A DNA stretch of 64,000 nt from a virus, in the IMG/VR virus record IMGVR_UViG_3300036774_000066, positions 62,001 through 126,000 of that record; one strand, given 5' to 3'. A program made the position numbers and the translations under genes. Shown here one piece after another: positions 5,099 to 14,723 of the stretch (its first letter is position 1; every line of letters begins with the position of its first letter). The notes beneath the pieces are model-generated. The model had not been told where the DNA came from and did no database searches. It saw only the letters and a list, made by a program, of their open reading frames with translations.

Positions 5099-6295
5099 TC
5101 AATTCTTTTTAGTAATGATAACACATTCCTTGTTACCAGCAGAAAACACTACCTTATCGTTGATAAAGGACACACTCACAAAGGCATCCCCCTTGAAAAC
5201 CCTTATGATAACTGCAAGGGTTTTCAAGGACACACCAAAAATTGCCTCCGAAGTAATGCCTTCCACTTTCTCCGAAATTGTAAAGTTAGAAACATCCCCT
5301 CTTCTATTTCTGAATACTCCCTTCAACGAATCTTTCCCAAAAACCAAGTCAACTACACCAGACGATTCAGGTATCCCGCTCAATGTGTTGACCTGTGAAG
5401 TAAGAAACGGCATATTGACAAAGTAACTTCCTGAACCCTTTACAAACGCAGTTTTATACTGTCCCACAAACTGCACATTCGTTTTAGGAAAGACATAGCT
5501 AAACTTATCTGATGTTAGAAAATACTTCTGGTCATAAGCAAAAATTTCCAAGTCAGCATTTCCTATTACAGCCAAGATTGACTGTATGAGAGTTATGTCA
5601 CTCCTTCGGATAATCACCGGAAAATACTCTTGCTTTATCCTTCCTACAACAGTACCATTACATGCGTAAATACCATCAGGTTCAACAAATATATAGTCAA
5701 AGTCTGAAATTTCCACAAAAGAAAGAATTGGGCTAATACTTTGGATAGAAGACAAAAGATCAGGGGTCTTTATTACTCCCTGTGAAGTAGGACTTCCGCT
5801 TACCATCCTTGACGTATAGATATTAGCATCCAGATTGAAAGTAGGTATGTAAATCTCCCCACCAAAAAAGTCCACAAAAACCTCTGGCTTACGGTGAATA
5901 AGATACACTTTCCCCTTATGCACTCTTGCCACTCTGTAAAACGTCTCAGCGTCTATTATCTTATGATTCGGAAAATGGTTATTCCTGCACGGAACAACAC
6001 ATGACATCAAAGAAACACCTTCACACATCTCGAACTTTGCACTTGTATCACTCATCAAGGTAATTCTCAGTGACCGAGAAATCACCATCTTTGTTACAGA
6101 CTTCTTGCTGATAAAAGGAAGAAGATAGGATAACAAAACTGAAGTGTCAAACTCCAAATAGTCAACACTGTCCGGCAACGTAACAGAACCAACATCCTTG
6201 AAATCATCTGACAAAGCCTCTTTACTAACTTCATCGTCAGATATTTCAACTTTACCTTGTAACTTGTCAAGCAAGTCCAACTTACTCTCAGCCAT
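5099..6295 (-). CDS. Sliding-clamp-like protein (DnaN/PCNA fold candidate)
   Basis: 398 residues, close to the length of bacterial beta clamps (about 370). The sequence is rich in alternating beta-strand patterns, with clamp-like stretches such as DSVDYLEFDTSVLL, a middle segment around ISDFDYIFVEPDGIYACNG, and a C-terminal KVVFSAGNKECVII reminiscent of the last strand of clamps. No single diagnostic motif exists for clamps, so this rests on length, texture and context. It has a strong AGGAGG ribosome binding site. It sits next to the Mre11 gene, and a clamp-loader-like gene is present at 18039-18518. It would tether the family A polymerase to DNA. A structural or unrelated role cannot be excluded. 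Confidence 0.5.
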   Translation of the reverse strand: MAESKLDLLDKLQGKVEISDDEVSKEALSDDFKDVGSVTLPDSVDYLEFDTSVLLSYLLPFISKKSVTKMVISRSLRITLMSDTSAKFEMCEGVSLMSCVVPCRNNHFPNHKIIDAETFYRVARVHKGKVYLIHRKPEVFVDFFGGEIYIPTFNLDANIYTSRMVSGSPTSQGVIKTPDLLSSIQSISPILSFVEISDFDYIFVEPDGIYACNGTVVGRIKQEYFPVIIRRSDITLIQSILAVIGNADLEIFAYDQKYFLTSDKFSYVFPKTNVQFVGQYKTAFVKGSGSYFVNMPFLTSQVNTLSGIPESSGVVDLVFGKDSLKGVFRNRRGDVSNFTISEKVEGITSEAIFGVSLKTLAVIIRVFKGDAFVSVSFINDKVVFSAGNKECVIITKKN

Positions 6296-6307: not shown

Positions 6308-7315
6308 TTATACCGAAATACCAAAATTCGTGAAGTATTGCTTAATAAATGTAAAAAGAGCAGGGTTATCTTTACACAAACGCAACAAACTCTCCCCAAT
6401 CTCAGAAGATATGTCCTGCTTCGACTTATCCTTCATCACCGCAATAAACTCACTCATCTTCTGAGATACTGCTTCCCGTTCAATCCTCACCAGACTGAAA
6501 ATTTGCTCTGCTGGCGCAACGGGAAGTGCCTCTTGCCTTACTTCGGCCTTCAGCCCTTCCCCAACTACCTTCACTGAAACAATGTCAAAGAACACGTCTC
6601 TGACACGGTTAATCGTATGTTTAGTACCACGAGAAAGAGCACCTGGACGAACAATCAACTTACCGTCAAGGTCAACCACGGGATACGGAACATGATCGTG
6701 ACCCATCAACAGACAATCCCACTTTGACGCTTTCACGTCATCCTGTAAAAAAGACTCTTCTTTTGTGATGGAAGTCAAACTATTTATCACAAAGGCATGA
6801 CCACAAAGCATCTTGTAATCAGCCTCCAAAGCTGGCTCTGGCAACGTGGGATTCAACACGTAATCTTGACCTTGCAGTAAAACCGTCTTACCGCCAACAT
6901 TAAAGGTCAGTGCCCCAAGTCTCCGTAAATGTTCCGATGAAAGTAAAACACCTAACGGACTCTTATTGACAGTCTCAGGATTTGCATGGTAAACATCATG
7001 ATTCCCAAATACCGTATACACCGGAACCTTAAACTCAGCAAAAGTATGAATTACTGTCGTCTTGTAAAGATCGGTCTGCGGCTTCTGGTGGTAAATATCC
7101 CCACCAATCAAAACAAAATCACACCCTGTTGCATCCGCTACCTTTGCCATCTTAGAAATCTTATTGAGAATAGTAACGGGGTAATTATCCTGCCGAGACA
7201 TCGGATTTATGTGATTGACATGAGGATCAGTAAAGAACAAAAAACGAAGTTCTTCCCTACGATCAGGAAAACTCTCCACCACCTTGTCAAGAAATTTCAA
7301 GAGAATATCACTCAT
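6308..7315 (-). CDS. Mre11/SbcD-type nuclease
   Basis: The 335-residue protein shows the calcineurin-like metallophosphoesterase motifs in order: TDPHVNH near residue 29, GGDIYH near residue 70, GNHDVYH near residue 102, GHAF in the middle, and GHDHVPY near residue 205. This is the arrangement of SbcD and T4 gp47, the nuclease that works with Rad50/SbcC/gp46 on double-strand ends. Both parts of a split Rad50 lie just upstream at 8453-11201, so the complex is probably complete. It would process DNA ends for recombination-dependent replication. The start overlaps the GNAT gene by 8 bases. Confidence 0.9.
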   Translation of the reverse strand: MSDILLKFLDKVVESFPDRREELRFLFFTDPHVNHINPMSRQDNYPVTILNKISKMAKVADATGCDFVLIGGDIYHQKPQTDLYKTTVIHTFAEFKVPVYTVFGNHDVYHANPETVNKSPLGVLLSSEHLRRLGALTFNVGGKTVLLQGQDYVLNPTLPEPALEADYKMLCGHAFVINSLTSITKEESFLQDDVKASKWDCLLMGHDHVPYPVVDLDGKLIVRPGALSRGTKHTINRVRDVFFDIVSVKVVGEGLKAEVRQEALPVAPAEQIFSLVRIEREAVSQKMSEFIAVMKDKSKQDISSEIGESLLRLCKDNPALFTFIKQYFTNFGISV

Positions 7316-8288: not shown

Positions 8289-8453
8289 CTACTCTACCTT
8301 CGATCCTACCTGCTTCTCCCACTCCTCTCGCACACCCGGATGGGACAAGTGACATGGCTTTGATTCACCGTTAGGAAATTTCACAAATCCGGCATCCTCT
8401 GTTGCCTCAATATTCCTACCGCAAATCCCGCAACTAAGTTTCTCTTTTGACAT
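8289..8453 (-). CDS. Small zinc-binding protein (54 aa)
   Basis: Starts MSKEKLSCGICGRNIE; CGIC plus CHLSH further on make a C2/CH zinc site. The ATG overlaps the stop of the Rad50 C-terminal gene (TGATG), so it is probably translated along with it. It could be an accessory of the Rad50-Mre11 complex, based on position only. Confidence 0.7.
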   Translation of the reverse strand: MSKEKLSCGICGRNIEATEDAGFVKFPNGESKPCHLSHPGVREEWEKQVGSKVE

Positions 8454-9100
8454 CACTTCTCCTTTTTCAAGTCACCATGAACCATACGATAAATCGAAGT
8501 CGCATAAGAAGTAAACCGGACATCATGAGTCACCCACAATACAGAAAATCCCAAATCATCGGTACACTGACGAATGAATTTGAACAGTCCCTCCACATAC
8601 ACATCTGACAACTGCGAAAGAGACTCGTCCAAAATCACGAATCTACGCAACCCCAAAACCAACATAAAGTAAACTCTCAAAATAAACGAAACAACTGTCT
8701 GCACACCTCCACCAACCGAATCTCTCAGTTTACATTTACGAATTTCTCCATCCTTCTTTTCTACCAAAAACAACTCCGCAGTCTTCATATCACCCCGATC
8801 CGCAATATCAATCTCTATAGAGTAATCTCTATCATCAAAAATGGTTCTCATACCATAAGTCAAGAGTTCTTGTAATTTTCTGATACTCTTTTCAGAAAGT
8901 TCACCAATAAGAATCTTTGTAACCTCTATTGCTTTCTCAGTAAATTCAAGCTGTAAAACCTTATCGGTATGTTGCTGTTTTACATCAGCAAGAGTAATCT
9001 CAGTGCCGTTTATGGACTCCCGAGTAGCTTGAAGTTTTGCTTGACAGGAAACAAACAAATCTTCAAGTTTACGAGCCTTATCTAACAACACGTCAGACAT
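8453..9100 (-). CDS. Rad50/SbcC-like ATPase, C-terminal half as separate protein
   Basis: The 215-residue protein carries the second half of an SMC/Rad50 ATPase: a coiled-coil N terminus, the ABC signature region SVGGGVQTVVSF near residue 135, the Walker B strand RFVILDESLSQL with its D-loop, and the H-loop VLWVTHD. There is no Walker A motif; that is in the separate gene at 9936-11201. T4 gp46, T5 D13 and bacterial SbcC hold both halves in one chain. The two proteins must meet to form an active site. I chose ATG at 9100 (AGGAGAG about 10 bases before it), overlapping the thymidylate kinase gene by 8 bases. Confidence 0.9.
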   Translation of the reverse strand: MSDVLLDKARKLEDLFVSCQAKLQATRESINGTEITLADVKQQHTDKVLQLEFTEKAIEVTKILIGELSEKSIRKLQELLTYGMRTIFDDRDYSIEIDIADRGDMKTAELFLVEKKDGEIRKCKLRDSVGGGVQTVVSFILRVYFMLVLGLRRFVILDESLSQLSDVYVEGLFKFIRQCTDDLGFSVLWVTHDVRFTSYATSIYRMVHGDLKKEK

Positions 9101-9692
9101 TACTATTTCTCTCCTCATCAAGCATACGAATAATCTGAGTCACTTTCTCTGTAACAACGGACAGAGAATCCTCCGCGTCAACTATCAACCCATCACATTC
9201 TGTCTGGTAATACAAGTGAACTCTCCTCAAGTAATCCTCTCCCCTTGACTCTATGTTATCCCCTCGCCTCACACGGCGAGCCATTGCAACCTCAAAGGGT
9301 AAGTCTAAAATGATGTTAATATCTGGATTACAAACATCAGACATTTCTAACAATCTCTCAACAAAAAAAGCATGACCATAGGCAAACTCTTGATATGCTT
9401 TTGTTGAATAATACCACCTATCAGCAATGACCAACTTCCCCCTATGCAAAGCAGGTTTAACTATCTTATTAGATGCTTCTATCATAGAAGCGACAAACAA
9501 GAAAAGTTCAGTTTGCTTTTCCAACTTCTCCCTTGAGTTAAGAAGTACCCTCTTTAATTCTCCCCCTGTATACGTAGTTCCCGGTTCCCGCACAATAACC
9601 GCATCAGGGTACACCTTTCTCAAGTTCCGAATAACAGACGTAATTCCAGAACCGTTGATTCCCTCAATAGTAATGAATCGACCCTTTTCCAT
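9093..9692 (-). CDS. tmk: Thymidylate kinase-like protein with altered P-loop
   Basis: The 199-residue protein has the order of motifs of dTMP kinase: a P-loop strand FITIEGINGSGITS, then VREPGTTYTGG (the REPG motif), and ADRWYYSTKAYQ (the DR-Y/W motif). The invariant P-loop lysine of GxxGxGK[ST] is isoleucine (codon ATT). Two base changes separate ATT from a lysine codon, so a single error is unlikely. The lid region with RVRRGDNIESRGEDY is intact. The enzyme would make dTDP for phage DNA synthesis, but activity is uncertain without the lysine. It lies between the two halves of Rad50. ATG at 9692 overlaps the previous stop as TGATG. Confidence 0.85.
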   Translation of the reverse strand: MEKGRFITIEGINGSGITSVIRNLRKVYPDAVIVREPGTTYTGGELKRVLLNSREKLEKQTELFLFVASMIEASNKIVKPALHRGKLVIADRWYYSTKAYQEFAYGHAFFVERLLEMSDVCNPDINIILDLPFEVAMARRVRRGDNIESRGEDYLRRVHLYYQTECDGLIVDAEDSLSVVTEKVTQIIRMLDEERNSNV

Positions 9693-9946
9693 CACACTGT
9701 CACCTTTGACAAAATAGTTTCCATTGTAGACAAACTCTGGGTAAGAGAATCCGTCAATGTCTGAAGTTCTGAGGTAAGCTGCTCATAAGAAGTAATACCA
9801 AAATCAGCCTGAAGTTTCAGCAAAATAGCGTTCTTTTGCTCAGTCAAAGCCGTCTGCCTCGCTTGCAACTTCTTCAAGTTATCCTTGATAGTCTCAACCT
9901 TAGAACTGAGAAGGTTAAACCTGTCAACTATCGGATTATTTGCCAT
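9692..9946 (-). CDS. Small coiled-coil protein in the Rad50 cluster (84 aa)
   Basis: ATG at 9946 follows GGAGGAG. It reads MANNPIVDRFNLLSSKV and continues as almost unbroken heptad-like helix (for example VETIKDNLKKLQARQ), with a break at FGITSYEQL. It overlaps the end of the Rad50 N-terminal gene by 11 bases. Position and coiled-coil nature suggest it could pair with, or replace, part of the ascending coiled coil of the split Rad50. This is inference. Confidence 0.75.
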   Translation of the reverse strand: MANNPIVDRFNLLSSKVETIKDNLKKLQARQTALTEQKNAILLKLQADFGITSYEQLTSELQTLTDSLTQSLSTMETILSKVTV

Positions 9947-11201
9947 GCACTCCTCCCTTATGTGAATCCAAAGGTTCTTGACAAAGAGGACAAACACCTA
10001 TCTCGTCCTTGTATTTCTCAAAATCTGCTTCTGCCTCGGTAAGACGTTTCTGCTCCTCCTCAATCTCTCCAGAAACACCAGACATTGAACCAAGTAAAGC
10101 GGAAAATAACCCTCCCATTTCCGAAAGACCCTTAAACCTATCCACCAAAGATTTCTCCGGTGGATTAGCTTGCTCTATAAGAAAAGCTAAAGACTTTTGT
10201 GCTTCTCCACACTGGAAAAGCTGAGAACCAACGTCGAAAAATCTCTGCGCAAAGTCACGTAACTTCTCCTCTTTATCAAGCAAACTCCGGTCGGGAATCT
10301 GAATGCTACTTATTATTGCCTCTCTGCCTTTTACCGCATTATCCGTTGCTATCAATTCAGAATCCAACTTAGAAATAACAGACAATGCCTCCATTAACTT
10401 TTGATAATTCCCAACCTGTGAAGGAACATTGGAGAAAGACAACAAAGGAAGTATCACCTCGTTGTCCAACAAAGTAACTGCACCAGATACTTGTTCTAAC
10501 TGAGGAACAACAGCTTCATACCCTTGCTTAATAGCAACCAACCTCTCATATTTTACCTTCCCTTTTCGCAAGCTAAGAAAGTCCGGCTCTGCCGCTGTAA
10601 TCTGAGCAAGGACAGCCTCTTTATTTTTCAACTGTAACAGGGAATTTTGGTATGCTGCAACCTGACCCTCCAACGCCACAAGTTCAGTCTTTATTTGCTT
10701 TGAGTCAACAACCATCTGCTTCAACACAGGTGTCAACTTCTTATCTTGCATCAACTGAGAAACAAAATCAAAAATGTAAGACGGAGAAGAAAAAACAAGA
10801 AAAGGCTCTTCCATCTGTCTCCAGATAAAAAGCCTCTCTTTATTGTCACGCACAACTATATCTTTTATACCAGCTTTTTCTAAGTCTTCCGGGGCAGTCT
10901 TACCCGTCCTCTTAAACTCCTTCTTGTTAATTACATACTCGGAGCCTCCTGTTCGACCCTTTATCCAAGAAACACTCAATTTTTCCCCATCATCTCCTTG
11001 AGGAAACACAATATCAACTTGACATTTCTCAGCATCATAATGAATAAAGTCACTTCCTTGATTAGAAAACAAGGCTGACTCTATTGCACGGCACAGAGAA
11101 GATTTGCCATGATTGGTAGAACCAACAACCATAGTAATGCCGTCTACATCAATTGCGGCATCACCTATGATCTGAAAAGACCTTACTCGTACACTAACCA
11201 C
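9936..11201 (-). CDS. Rad50/SbcC-like ATPase, N-terminal half ending at the zinc hook
   Basis: The 421-residue protein starts VSVRVRSFQIIGD (GTG start after AGGAGA) and has Walker A GSTNHGKSSL near residue 27 and a Q-loop-like RQMEEPF near residue 124. A long coiled coil follows, and the CPLCQEPL zinc-hook CxxC lies only about 13 residues before the end. No Walker B or signature motif is present; these are in 8453-9100. The chain therefore stops just after the hook apex. With the Mre11 gene at 6308-7315 it should form a double-strand-end processing complex. Confidence 0.9.
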   Translation of the reverse strand: MVSVRVRSFQIIGDAAIDVDGITMVVGSTNHGKSSLCRAIESALFSNQGSDFIHYDAEKCQVDIVFPQGDDGEKLSVSWIKGRTGGSEYVINKKEFKRTGKTAPEDLEKAGIKDIVVRDNKERLFIWRQMEEPFLVFSSPSYIFDFVSQLMQDKKLTPVLKQMVVDSKQIKTELVALEGQVAAYQNSLLQLKNKEAVLAQITAAEPDFLSLRKGKVKYERLVAIKQGYEAVVPQLEQVSGAVTLLDNEVILPLLSFSNVPSQVGNYQKLMEALSVISKLDSELIATDNAVKGREAIISSIQIPDRSLLDKEEKLRDFAQRFFDVGSQLFQCGEAQKSLAFLIEQANPPEKSLVDRFKGLSEMGGLFSALLGSMSGVSGEIEEEQKRLTEAEADFEKYKDEIGVCPLCQEPLDSHKGGVHGK

Positions 11202-11206
11202 AATAA

Positions 11207-11701
11207 TTATCTCCTGTAATCTCGTCGTTCCTTGTCATCCCGCCTGTCATCCCGCCTGTCATCCCTCCTGTCATCACGAAAATGGTAACGATCCCCAAAG
11301 CTATTGCCTCTCTTATTGACATAAATCAAAAAAGCCATGCAAATAGCATGTGCAGGATTAAGACTCTTGGCGACGTGCTTAAAGTAAATTCCTCGTTTTG
11401 CAAAGTCGCTTGGAAAGATACGAAGTTCACACCAGTATTCGTCTTCATCATGATTTCTCGATAAACGAAACCACGAAAATCCAGAGACAATAAACTCAAA
11501 ACAAAGCCCAATATCCCTCGAAAAAGGCCGAGGATTATCCTCGTTTCCTCCCTCTACTGCTTTTTCAATCAACCTGTCTATCTCTTCTCCCTCCCTGAGT
11601 TCATAAATTTCCTCTCTTGTAAGACCATCCCTTATGTCAACCTTCACATCTGCCCTTGTTTCAACCCTATCTTTCTCTTGTGGTTCTCTCTTGAAAAGCA
11701 T
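11207..11701 (-). CDS. Hypothetical protein with arginine-aspartate repeat tail
   Basis: 164 residues. The N-terminal part is charged. The middle holds aromatic beta-like stretches (CFEFIVSGFSWFRL). The C terminus has repeated RDDR units encoded by 12-base tandem repeats. The central domain is not recognised. The charged repeat tail could bind nucleic acid or be a flexible linker. It sits between the RecA and Rad50 N-terminal genes, so a recombination accessory role is possible. Confidence 0.7.
   Translation of the reverse strand: MLFKREPQEKDRVETRADVKVDIRDGLTREEIYELREGEEIDRLIEKAVEGGNEDNPRPFSRDIGLCFEFIVSGFSWFRLSRNHDEDEYWCELRIFPSDFAKRGIYFKHVAKSLNPAHAICMAFLIYVNKRGNSFGDRYHFRDDRRDDRRDDRRDDKERRDYRR
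11233..11275. repeat. 12-bp tandem repeat in coding sequence
   Basis: About 3.5 copies of TGTCATCCCGCC on the plus strand (third copy with one change) encode the RDDR repeats of the 11207-11701 protein. Such in-frame repeats can vary in number between related phages by slippage. Confidence 0.9.
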
Positions 11702-11729: not shown

Positions 11730-12935
11730 TTACAGACGTTCTTTGGCTCTGAGAAAGTCAATCACTGCTGCCTCATTCTTAATAACCCACTCCTCCAATG
11801 CCCTCCTACCTTGACAAGAAGTTGTCAGACCATTCATATCTACATAGTAAAAAGCCTTGTTCTGCTTGACAGCACCCTCTTCCTGCAAAAGAAACGTGAA
11901 TGCTCGAATGTTAGAAATTCCCTTTCCGAAAAAGATAGAAATAACTGTCTTGATAAAAGGCATGGTAATCTTGTTCTTTACACATTCAGCAGTTATATCT
12001 GCTCCTATCTTTCTGGTAACTCCATCAACCGTCTCCTCAATCCAACTCGCTAACGAAATGTCAACCCGAATGTCCGGCCAAAACTCCAATGCCAGACCGC
12101 CAGCGGCCTTTACATGAGAAGAACCCCGAAAATCAAACTTTGTCCTTTTTTGATTAACAATAACAAGACTTGAGTTAGCCCGAGCAAAAGCAGCCTTGTA
12201 CTTTCCCAAGAAATTTCCTGTCAACCGAGAATGCCAGCCAGGTTCCGCATCCTCAATTTTAAGATCACCCGAAACTATCTTGTCAAACAGCATTGCAGTA
12301 ATGGAATCAACAACAACCAATTCAGGTACTCTATTACTTACCAGCAGAGAATCTATTATACTCTCTGTCTGCTCAAACGTATCCGGCTTAATAACTATAA
12401 AAGTCTTTTGATAGTAAGGTTCTAACCCAACCCCAAAAATCAAACTCTCATTCAACGCTTTCTCAACGTCAATAAGAATTGCAACACCACCAGATTGACA
12501 AACTCTCAAACACCAGCACAGCACACAGGTAGACTTTCCAAGTCCAGCATCCGAGTGAAGTTCAATAATCCTCCCTCGTGGTATGCCTCCACCAAAAATA
12601 TAATTAAACCCTATAGAACCAGAGTCAATAAAATCCACCTTACTACTCACACGAAACCTTTGTGCAAAATCAGCACATAGCGTATCAAAATCAGTTGACG
12701 GTTTACCAGCCTTTTCTTCTTTCCCTCCCCGTCTACCGCGAATCATCACGGAAGAAATAGAAGGAGGAAGAGAGGTAGCTGGAGGAACTGGAGGAACTGG
12801 AGGAACTGTCTTCGCATCTTCCGGCGTAACAATAGGTACAGTAGCAACAGACTCAGAAACAACAGGTGTAGAAACAACAGGTGCAGGCGCAGGTGCAGAA
12901 ACATTCTTCTTAGACTTTGCAAACTCTATAGGCAT
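11730..12935 (-). CDS. recA: RecA/UvsX-family recombinase
   Basis: 401 residues. The first 90 residues are a low-complexity proline/valine/alanine-rich linker. The RecA core then has Walker A SDAGLGKST near residue 128, Walker B ELVVVDS near residue 207, and an L2-like DNA-binding loop beginning NQKRTKFDFRGSSH, followed by GGLALEFW. These are the features of the strand-exchange ATPase RecA/UvsX, which forms filaments on single-stranded DNA. The disordered N terminus is unusual for RecA. Next to it are a RuvC-like nuclease and the probable ssDNA-binding protein, giving a compact recombination cluster. Confidence 0.92.
   Translation of the reverse strand: MPIEFAKSKKNVSAPAPAPVVSTPVVSESVATVPIVTPEDAKTVPPVPPVPPATSLPPSISSVMIRGRRGGKEEKAGKPSTDFDTLCADFAQRFRVSSKVDFIDSGSIGFNYIFGGGIPRGRIIELHSDAGLGKSTCVLCWCLRVCQSGGVAILIDVEKALNESLIFGVGLEPYYQKTFIVIKPDTFEQTESIIDSLLVSNRVPELVVVDSITAMLFDKIVSGDLKIEDAEPGWHSRLTGNFLGKYKAAFARANSSLVIVNQKRTKFDFRGSSHVKAAGGLALEFWPDIRVDISLASWIEETVDGVTRKIGADITAECVKNKITMPFIKTVISIFFGKGISNIRAFTFLLQEEGAVKQNKAFYYVDMNGLTTSCQGRRALEEWVIKNEAAVIDFLRAKERL
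12781..12807. repeat. 9-bp tandem repeat in RecA linker
   Basis: Three copies of GGAGGAACT encode the Pro-Pro-Val repeats of the RecA N-terminal linker. Probably variable in length between relatives. Confidence 0.85.
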
Positions 12936-13594: not shown

Positions 13595-14668
13595 TTACCT
13601 CAGAAAAGACTTGAGATTGGTTGCCTGTTGCGGCATTGCCTGAGACGCATCAGACTGACCAGAAACGAGCTTCATGAAGGAAGACTCGTTTAACACGCGG
13701 GCAATCACAGTCGGTAGCATGTTTTTCAAGGGAGAAACCCCTAACTGAGGATTACCATTCCACTTTATCATAACCTGCTCGCCCAACTGTGGGTACTGTC
13801 TCCACGTAGCCGGACCAACATTTTGCATGTGTAAAGTCTGAAATTTCTGGTCGGAACAAGTGACAATAAAGTCCAATGTGTCAATAGGGACATTCGCATC
13901 CAAAGCCTTGAGTGCCTTATACTCATCTTCCGCGAGGCTGAGATACATAACATCAAACTTCGCGGAAATAATTTGCCCTGTCATGTCCGTATCGTACAAT
14001 ACGATTGGGACAATGTATCGCACTGACGGGATTCCTAAGTTCTCACAGCACTTCCCCGAAAAGCAGTAGAAATAACCAAAATCGTCCAGCCAATGAGTCT
14101 TCACCACGGCAATCTGTCGGTCGATCATCCCCAACCGATATGTCGGTCCAACACTTGCCTTGAAACGGTTGATCGGGTATCTCTGGACCTCTACCCCGAA
14201 GGAACCCCACATAAACCCTGCTTGCGGAGGAGCCGCTGACGCTGACGCTGTAGGGCTTGGCATCATTGGAGGGGAAAAAGGTACAGGTGCCGGAGGAAAC
14301 ATCATCTGCTGCGGAGGAAACACCATTGCAGGGGCTTGTGGTGCCGGGACAGGTGCCGGGACAGGTGCCGGGACAGGTGCCGGGACAGGTGCCGAAGGCT
14401 GTGCAAAAATAGCAGGATTTACAGGAGGGACCGAAACGGGCTGTGAACTTACTGCTGGTGGAACTGCCTGGGAAGCAGCCAAAGCAGCGGAAATACGCTG
14501 CGCTGCATCGGGTGACTCTATCGCTGTTGCTGGTGTCAAGATAGCAGATGAAGCAACAGGAGCAGCAACGGGCTGCGGAGCCGCCTGTGCTGCTGGAGGA
14601 GTTACTTTACCTCCAAGAATATCATCCAAGCTAACAGAACCCAAAACAGGCTTACCATTCTCAGACAT
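13595..14668 (-). CDS. Probable single-stranded DNA-binding protein with long Pro/Ala linker
   Basis: 357 residues from the ATG at 14668, chosen because GGAGG precedes it by four bases. Residues about 25-155 are low-complexity Ala/Pro/Gln with PAPV repeats. A folded domain follows (GVEVQRYPINRFKASVG, then GYFYCFSGKCCENLG with three cysteines), and the tail ends TNLKSFLR. I do not see a clear OB-fold signature. The ssDNA-binding call rests on position (own terminator and promoter upstream, RuvC-like and RecA genes downstream), the cysteine cluster and the modular design. It could be another recombination mediator. Confidence 0.5.
   Translation of the reverse strand: MSENGKPVLGSVSLDDILGGKVTPPAAQAAPQPVAAPVASSAILTPATAIESPDAAQRISAALAASQAVPPAVSSQPVSVPPVNPAIFAQPSAPVPAPVPAPVPAPVPAPQAPAMVFPPQQMMFPPAPVPFSPPMMPSPTASASAAPPQAGFMWGSFGVEVQRYPINRFKASVGPTYRLGMIDRQIAVVKTHWLDDFGYFYCFSGKCCENLGIPSVRYIVPIVLYDTDMTGQIISAKFDVMYLSLAEDEYKALKALDANVPIDTLDFIVTCSDQKFQTLHMQNVGPATWRQYPQLGEQVMIKWNGNPQLGVSPLKNMLPTVIARVLNESSFMKLVSGQSDASQAMPQQATNLKSFLR
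14340..14394. repeat. 12-bp tandem repeat in coding sequence
   Basis: Four full copies plus a partial copy of GGTGCCGGGACA encode the repeated PAPV linker of the ssDNA-binding candidate. Confidence 0.95.
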
Positions 14669-14723
14669 AAAATCCTCCATTGTTTACTTGACTTGACACT
14701 TACAACATGGATGGGACAACACC

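What the first reader, a model, noticed from the sequence alone, without database searches (positions are those of the whole stretch)
8453..11201. Rad50/SbcC homologue split into two genes at the zinc hook, with thymidylate kinase and a coiled-coil gene between
Walker A and coiled coil end at a CPLC hook in one gene (9936-11201). Signature motif, Walker B and H-loop are in another (8453-9100). T4 gp46, T5 D13 and bacterial SbcC are single chains. The intervening 84-residue coiled-coil protein may supply part of the returning coil. Seen: motif positions and stop codons. Inference: the parts assemble.
Basis: partly seen in the sequence, partly recalled or inferred. Interest (0 to 1): 0.75.

Follow-up and report, generated by a model that had tools for sequence, protein, structure and literature searches.

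The report
Naturally split three-piece phage Rad50
This phage, and more than 70 distinct distant relatives, makes the DNA-end-repair ATPase Rad50 as two separate proteins cut exactly at the zinc hook, accompanied by a small helical protein that looks like a previously unnoticed third subunit.

Summary
The N-half (9936-11201, minus strand) carries Rad50 lobe I and a coiled coil and ends 14 residues after a CPLC hook. The C-half (8453-9100) is a short coil plus Rad50 lobe II. An 84-residue coil gene (S, 9692-9946) and tmk lie between, in one overlapping gene run with Mre11 downstream.

It is not a sequencing break. A sister genome has the same arrangement. Metagenome-virus scans gave 78 distinct N-halves; 74 of 75 complete ones end 7-25 residues after a CxxC (1.4% of control ORFs do). 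C-halves are separate proteins of about 205-240 residues. Profile searches identify both halves as Rad50, including the zinc hook. Split and intact Rad50s separate cleanly in a tree.

S is a conserved family, one copy per locus. It is absent (E<=0.001) from nine phage genomes with intact Rad50. S plus C-half equals the post-hook length of intact phage Rad50, suggesting a three-piece Rad50. But S shows no detectable homology to the return coil and does not track N-half length, so its place in the complex, and assembly itself, are inferred.

No published description was found. New variant of a known kind.

The parts
9936..11201 (-). Rad50 N-half: lobe I (Walker A), outgoing coil, zinc hook at the C-terminus; 421 aa, GTG start
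   Evidence: Pfam AAA_23 4.2e-9; PHROG 16465 3.7e-13; family profile matches Rad50 N-lobe 1e-10 and Rad50 zinc-hook structures 1l8d/6zff about 1e-3; AF2 model matches Rad50 chain 1f2u 8e-6
11100..11123 (-). Walker A, GSTNHGKS (residues 27-34)
   Evidence: sequence; G27, G32, K33 invariant in 31-35 relatives
9981..9992 (-). zinc-hook motif CPLC (residues 404-407), 14 residues before the stop
   Evidence: sequence; C404 and C407 invariant in A7; same place in 74 of 75 distinct N-halves
9692..9946 (-). S: 84-aa helix-break-helix protein, conserved third component
   Evidence: family alignment A6; 115 hits, one per locus, among 15,022 ORFs; AF2 helices 5-49 and 54-81, mean pLDDT 86
9093..9695 (-). 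thymidylate kinase, interposed gene, not part of the conserved set
   Evidence: Pfam PF02223 1.2e-30; shared only with the sister genome
8453..9100 (-). Rad50 C-half: about 75-aa returning coil plus lobe II; 215 aa from ATG 9100
   Evidence: PHROG 15167 1.6e-15; family profile best matches Rad50 C-lobe 3qkr_B 6e-15 and 1ii8_B 2e-14
8702..8722 (-). ABC signature region, SVGGGVQ (about residues 127-133)
   Evidence: sequence; G130 and G131 over 90% conserved in 45 C-halves
8624..8638 (-). Walker B, VILDE (residues 155-159)
   Evidence: sequence; D158 and E159 invariant in 45 C-halves
8525..8527 (-). H-loop histidine 192
   Evidence: invariant in 45 C-halves
6308..7315 (-). Mre11/SbcD nuclease, 335 aa, expected partner
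   Evidence: Pfam Metallophos 2.8e-11; PHROG 100 SbcD-like 3.5e-10
5099..6295 (-). probable sliding clamp (context only)
   Evidence: no hit itself; sister protein matches PHROG 947 processivity factor 4.5e-4
11730..12935 (-). UvsX/RecA-like recombinase (context)
   Evidence: Pfam RecA 2.8e-38; PHROG 97 7.8e-43

Best explanation
This is a naturally split Rad50. The N-half and C-half fold together without a peptide bond into one ABC head: lobe I with Walker A from one chain, lobe II with signature, Walker B and H-loop from the other. The C-half's roughly 75-residue N-terminal helix packs antiparallel on the base of the N-half coil. The N-half coil ends in a CxxC that pairs with a second complex through zinc. 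With the phage Mre11 this makes an ATP-gated complex that processes DNA ends for recombination-dependent replication. The small protein S is a dedicated third subunit that most likely packs on the coil arm of the N-half and supplies the missing hook-side part of the return strand. Shown: identity of the halves, conserved split point, conserved co-occurrence with S and Mre11, separation from intact Rad50 in a tree. Inferred: assembly, zinc pairing, DNA-end processing, and the position of S.
For: Identity: C-half profile hits Rad50 C-lobes at 6e-15; N-half profile hits Rad50 N-lobes at 1e-10 and the solved Rad50 hook at its last 58 positions; Foldseek best hit of the N-half model is 1f2u, a Rad50 structure solved as separate N- and C-lobe chains (1f2t/1f2u A and B chains). 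Conservation: 78 distinct N-halves, 74 of 75 complete ones ending 7-25 aa after CxxC, control rate 1.4%; the separate C-half in every locus. Linkage: N, Mre11, S and C all present in 56 of 78 loci, many of the rest cut by contig ends; S in 12 split records at E<=0.001 and in none of nine intact-Rad50 phage records. Length: S (84) + C-half (215) = 299 aa against 258-333 aa after the hook in nine intact phage Rad50s. Tree: 63 split sets and 10 intact proteins separate with support 1.0.
Against: No complex could be predicted. S does not match the return coil of intact Rad50 by profile. N-half hook position varies (SD 51 aa) while S (SD 6) and the C-half coil (SD 6) do not, and they do not correlate (Spearman about 0), so S plus C cannot pair with the whole N-half coil. 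AF2 of the N-half coil is poor (pLDDT 37-75, pTM 0.36). In Tunturi_5 and Magritte the two halves are encoded about 100 kb apart.
Confidence: 0.8

Rival explanations
1. Three-piece assembly is wrong for S: the two halves make a Rad50, but S is a separate accessory factor, for example a partner of the PD-(D/E)XK nuclease, the sliding clamp or Mre11.
For: In the large clade S lies between a PD-(D/E)XK nuclease gene and the clamp gene (L003), and in Magritte S is next to the PD-(D/E)XK nuclease gene. No sequence match to the Rad50 return coil; no length tracking.
Against: In the window, Tunturi_5, vB_BboS-125, Mvi-JY20 and L065 S is next to a Rad50 half or Mre11 with no such nuclease or clamp beside it. 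S follows the split Rad50 across its deepest branches.
Confidence: 0.4
2. Assembly or sequencing break, or a decaying pseudogene of an intact Rad50.
For: None beyond the split itself.
Against: Same architecture in a sister genome and in more than 70 distinct contigs; conserved motifs in both halves; whole genes in between; control rate 1.4%.
Confidence: 0.01
3. The halves are rejoined after transcription or translation (split intein or trans-splicing).
For: Some phages split genes with split inteins or introns (general knowledge).
Against: N-halves end only 7-25 aa after the hook, leaving no room for an intein fragment, and C-halves start directly with coil. The halves are 100 kb apart in two phages.
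Confidence: 0.01
4. The N- and C-halves act in separate complexes and never form a composite ATPase.
For: They are unlinked in Tunturi_5 and Magritte.
Against: Each has only half of an ABC site; Walker A on one and signature, Walker B and H-loop on the other are all conserved. All split records with near-complete data hold both.
Confidence: 0.05

Closest known systems
Phage T4 gp46/gp47 (Rad50/Mre11)
   Same: Rad50 lobes, CxxC hook, Mre11 partner; in T4 also near clamp and clamp-loader genes
   Different: gp46 is one 560-aa chain with the hook in the middle; no S gene in the T4 record
Phage T5-type D13 (Salmonella phage S130 homologue) and bacterial SbcC
   Same: same domains and hook
   Different: single chains of 598 and 1048 aa with central hooks
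Pyrococcus furiosus Rad50 two-chain crystal constructs (1f2t, 1f2u, 1ii8)
   Same: N-lobe and C-lobe as separate polypeptides forming one ABC head
   Different: laboratory constructs lacking the hook; the phage split is natural and at the hook
PHROG 16465 (exonuclease) and PHROG 15167 (ATPase)
   Same: the N-half and C-half families as already catalogued: 35 of 35 and 45 of 45 members match
   Different: listed as unrelated families, with no note that they are halves of one protein or that S belongs
Split DNA polymerase III alpha of jumbo phages (PMC7824862)
   Same: a phage enzyme encoded as two stand-alone halves expected to reconstitute
   Different: a different enzyme; that paper describes SbcC as near-universal in jumbo phages and does not describe a split SbcC

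Membership tests
Rad50/SbcC | ABC lobe I with Walker A | tested here: met
   AAA_23 4.2e-9; profile to Rad50 N-lobes 1e-10; GSTNHGKS
Rad50/SbcC | ABC lobe II with signature, Walker B and H-loop | tested here: met
   profile to Rad50 C-lobe 6e-15; D158, E159 and H192 invariant
Rad50/SbcC | coiled coil ending in a CxxC zinc hook | tested here: met
   CxxC plus weak profile match to solved hooks 1l8d and 6zff (about 1e-3)
Rad50/SbcC | both lobes in one chain with the hook in the middle | tested here: not met
   two genes with the hook at the C-terminus of the first; T4, T5-like and E. coli proteins meet it. It is a split variant, not a canonical member
Rad50/SbcC | Mre11/SbcD partner encoded nearby | tested here: met
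   6308-7315 Metallophos 2.8e-11; Mre11 in nearly all loci
Rad50/SbcC | ATP-dependent head dimerisation and zinc-mediated hook pairing | not testable with these tools
   needs protein biochemistry
SMC / RecN / RecF | better match to SMC, RecN or RecF heads and no CxxC hook | tested here: not met
   Rad50 chains rank first for both halves; SMC, RecN and RecF score lower; hook present
S as the return coil of Rad50 | sequence homology to the post-hook coil of intact Rad50 | tested here: inconclusive
   no profile signal, but coiled coils rarely give one; length sum fits

The most novel reading that the evidence does not exclude
Rad50 in this phage group is an obligate three-subunit machine (N-half, S, C-half) whose coiled-coil arm is assembled from separate chains, so that the arm can open or exchange parts, which a single-chain Rad50 cannot do.
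Probability: 0.35. Interest if true: 0.8.

Novelty: new variant of a known kind. Interest (0 to 1): 0.64.

Why it matters
Rad50 is treated as one chain whose continuous coil passes signals between the DNA-binding head and the zinc hook. A natural, deeply conserved version broken exactly at the hook would show that covalent continuity through the hook is not required. It would give a small system to test what the coil and hook do, and it exposes a conserved small partner without annotation. It also corrects annotation: two PHROG families and many 'exonuclease', 'ATPase' or 'hypothetical' genes are halves of one protein.

Tried and rejected
Sequencing break or pseudogene: rejected. Split intein or intron: rejected on lengths and gene distances. 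Fused relatives: none among 146 fetched loci; the longer C-half and S ORFs (L060, L059, L062, L050) look like spurious upstream extensions in open GC-rich frames. Intact second Rad50 in the same genome: none in the 156.6 kb held, though the record may be a fragment. Cellular homologues: one pattern scan of genome contigs found none, a narrow test. An extra His or Cys just after the hook (64 of 78 tails, 23% expected) looked like a new zinc ligand, but several intact phage hooks show His there too, so it is not specific to the split form. Fold search of S: no useful match. HHalign of S to the post-hook coil: no signal.

Full report
Observation. On the minus strand of the window, genes run N-half (11201-9936), S (9946-9692), thymidylate kinase (9695-9093), C-half (9100-8453), several small genes, a GNAT gene, Mre11 (7315-6308) and a probable clamp (6295-5099), with a RecA/UvsX gene upstream. 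Start and stop codons of the first four overlap by 4-11 nt and each has a purine-rich site in front. The N-half has Walker A at residues 27-34 and CPLC at 404-407 of 421. The C-half has the signature, Walker B and H-loop motifs.

The split is real and old. A sister record of 167,660 bp has the same genes in the same order at 60% (N), 73% (S) and 77% (C) identity. Named phages carry the same set: the 485-kb uncultured phage LR745208, Tunturiibacter phage Tunturi_5, Bacillus phage vB_BboS-125, Microcystis phage Mvi-JY20 and Microbacterium phage Magritte. Two scans of viral contigs gave 50 C-half and 80 N-half loci. After removing sequences 90% alike, 78 N-halves remain. Of 75 not cut by a contig end, 74 end 7-25 residues (median 13) after a CxxC; the exception is Magritte. 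In the same loci 10 of 710 other ORFs of 300 aa or more have a CxxC in their last 30 residues. C-halves are separate proteins; a few longer ORFs are explained by spurious upstream extension. No fused form was seen.

Identity. The C-half family profile finds Rad50 C-lobes first among solved structures (3qkr_B 6e-15, 1ii8_B 2e-14). The N-half profile finds Rad50 N-lobes (1e-10) and, with its last 58 positions, the solved Rad50 zinc hook (1l8d and 6zff, about 1e-3). The AF2 model of the N-half has a good lobe I (pLDDT about 80-90) and a weakly predicted coil in four helices, 156-242, 263-299, 311-344 and 350-401. Its best PDB match is 1f2u, a Rad50 solved as separate N- and C-lobe chains. That lobes I and II of Rad50 can associate without a covalent link is established for that archaeal construct; here it is inferred.

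Evolution. In a tree of concatenated lobes, 63 split sets and 10 intact proteins (nine phage Rad50s and E. coli SbcC) form a clean two-way division with support 1.0. This fits one ancient split, or one ancient fusion, rather than repeated breaks. Intact Rad50 is far commoner among cultured phages: 3,825 records match T4 gp46, against the handful of records found with the split form.

The small protein S. S is a 78-106-residue family: helix of about 45 residues, a conserved break (LDPD-type or GI/GV-type), then a helix of about 28 residues. Its profile hit 115 of 15,022 ORFs, exactly one per locus where found. Whole-record searches found it at E<=0.001 in 12 of the split records, in Magritte at 9e-4, and in none of nine intact-Rad50 phage records (the two hits at 0.003-0.005 are stretches of large unrelated frames or of the Rad50 coil itself). 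Split records that first seemed to lack it mostly have a diverged S-like ORF in place: L065 8610-8867 between Mre11 and C-half, Magritte gp245, and ORFs in L043, L062 and G008 (by eye and weak scores). No S-like ORF was found for G005, a 64-kb contig. Gene order in loci holding all four is N-Mre11-S-C in 54 and N-S-C-Mre11 in 2. No PHROG or Pfam family covers S in general.

What S might do. For: S (84) plus C-half (215) is 299 residues, within the 258-333 residues that follow the hook in nine intact phage Rad50s, so the two together could supply the returning half. Against: N-half hook position varies widely (SD 51) while S and C-half coil are constant (SD about 6) with no correlation; S has no profile similarity to the return coil. 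The simplest reading is that the C-half helix pairs with the base of the N-half coil, S binds a fixed site on the arm, probably near the hook, and the extra length of the N-half folds on itself. This is inference. An accessory role with the neighbouring PD-(D/E)XK nuclease or the clamp is not excluded.

Likely function. Together with Mre11 and a UvsX-like recombinase in the same gene run, the complex most likely processes DNA ends for recombination-dependent replication, as T4 gp46/47 do (established for T4; inferred here).

Literature. Searches of 5.39 million open papers found no mention of a split SbcC or Rad50. Papers on three of the isolates do not discuss it, and the jumbo-phage survey PMC7824862 treats SbcC as near-universal without describing a split. 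Subscription papers and preprints were not searchable, so novelty is provisional.

Verdict. Observation confirmed; interpretation partly supported and extended; new variant of a known kind; assembly and the role of S remain to be shown.

Noticed in passing
L059 2539-4866; L076 10236-12470; L099 10233-12335: Mre11 ORFs of 700-775 aa contain a LAGLIDADG-like insertion that looks like an intein inside the nuclease (Pfam LAGLIDADG_3).
   Followed up: partly
11207-11300: The 164-aa gene upstream of the N-half ends in a DDRRDDRRDD repeat encoded by a short DNA tandem repeat; the sister genome has a similar but different RD-rich tail.
   Followed up: no
L003 11382-12392; L178 1863-2720: A PD-(D/E)XK (RecB/Cas4-like) nuclease gene lies directly beside S in LR745208 and Magritte.
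   Followed up: partly
5099-6295: A 398-aa protein without family hits is probably a diverged sliding clamp, judging from its sister's weak PHROG 947 match.
   Followed up: partly
NC_048735.1 gp33 (L015 8032-8604): In Bacillus phage vB_BboS-125 an AP2-domain gene sits between the N-half and S, possibly a mobile insertion.
   Followed up: no
13595-14680: Proline/alanine-rich 361-aa protein between the RuvC-like position and the RecA gene, without family hits; the position suggests a single-strand binding protein.
   Followed up: no
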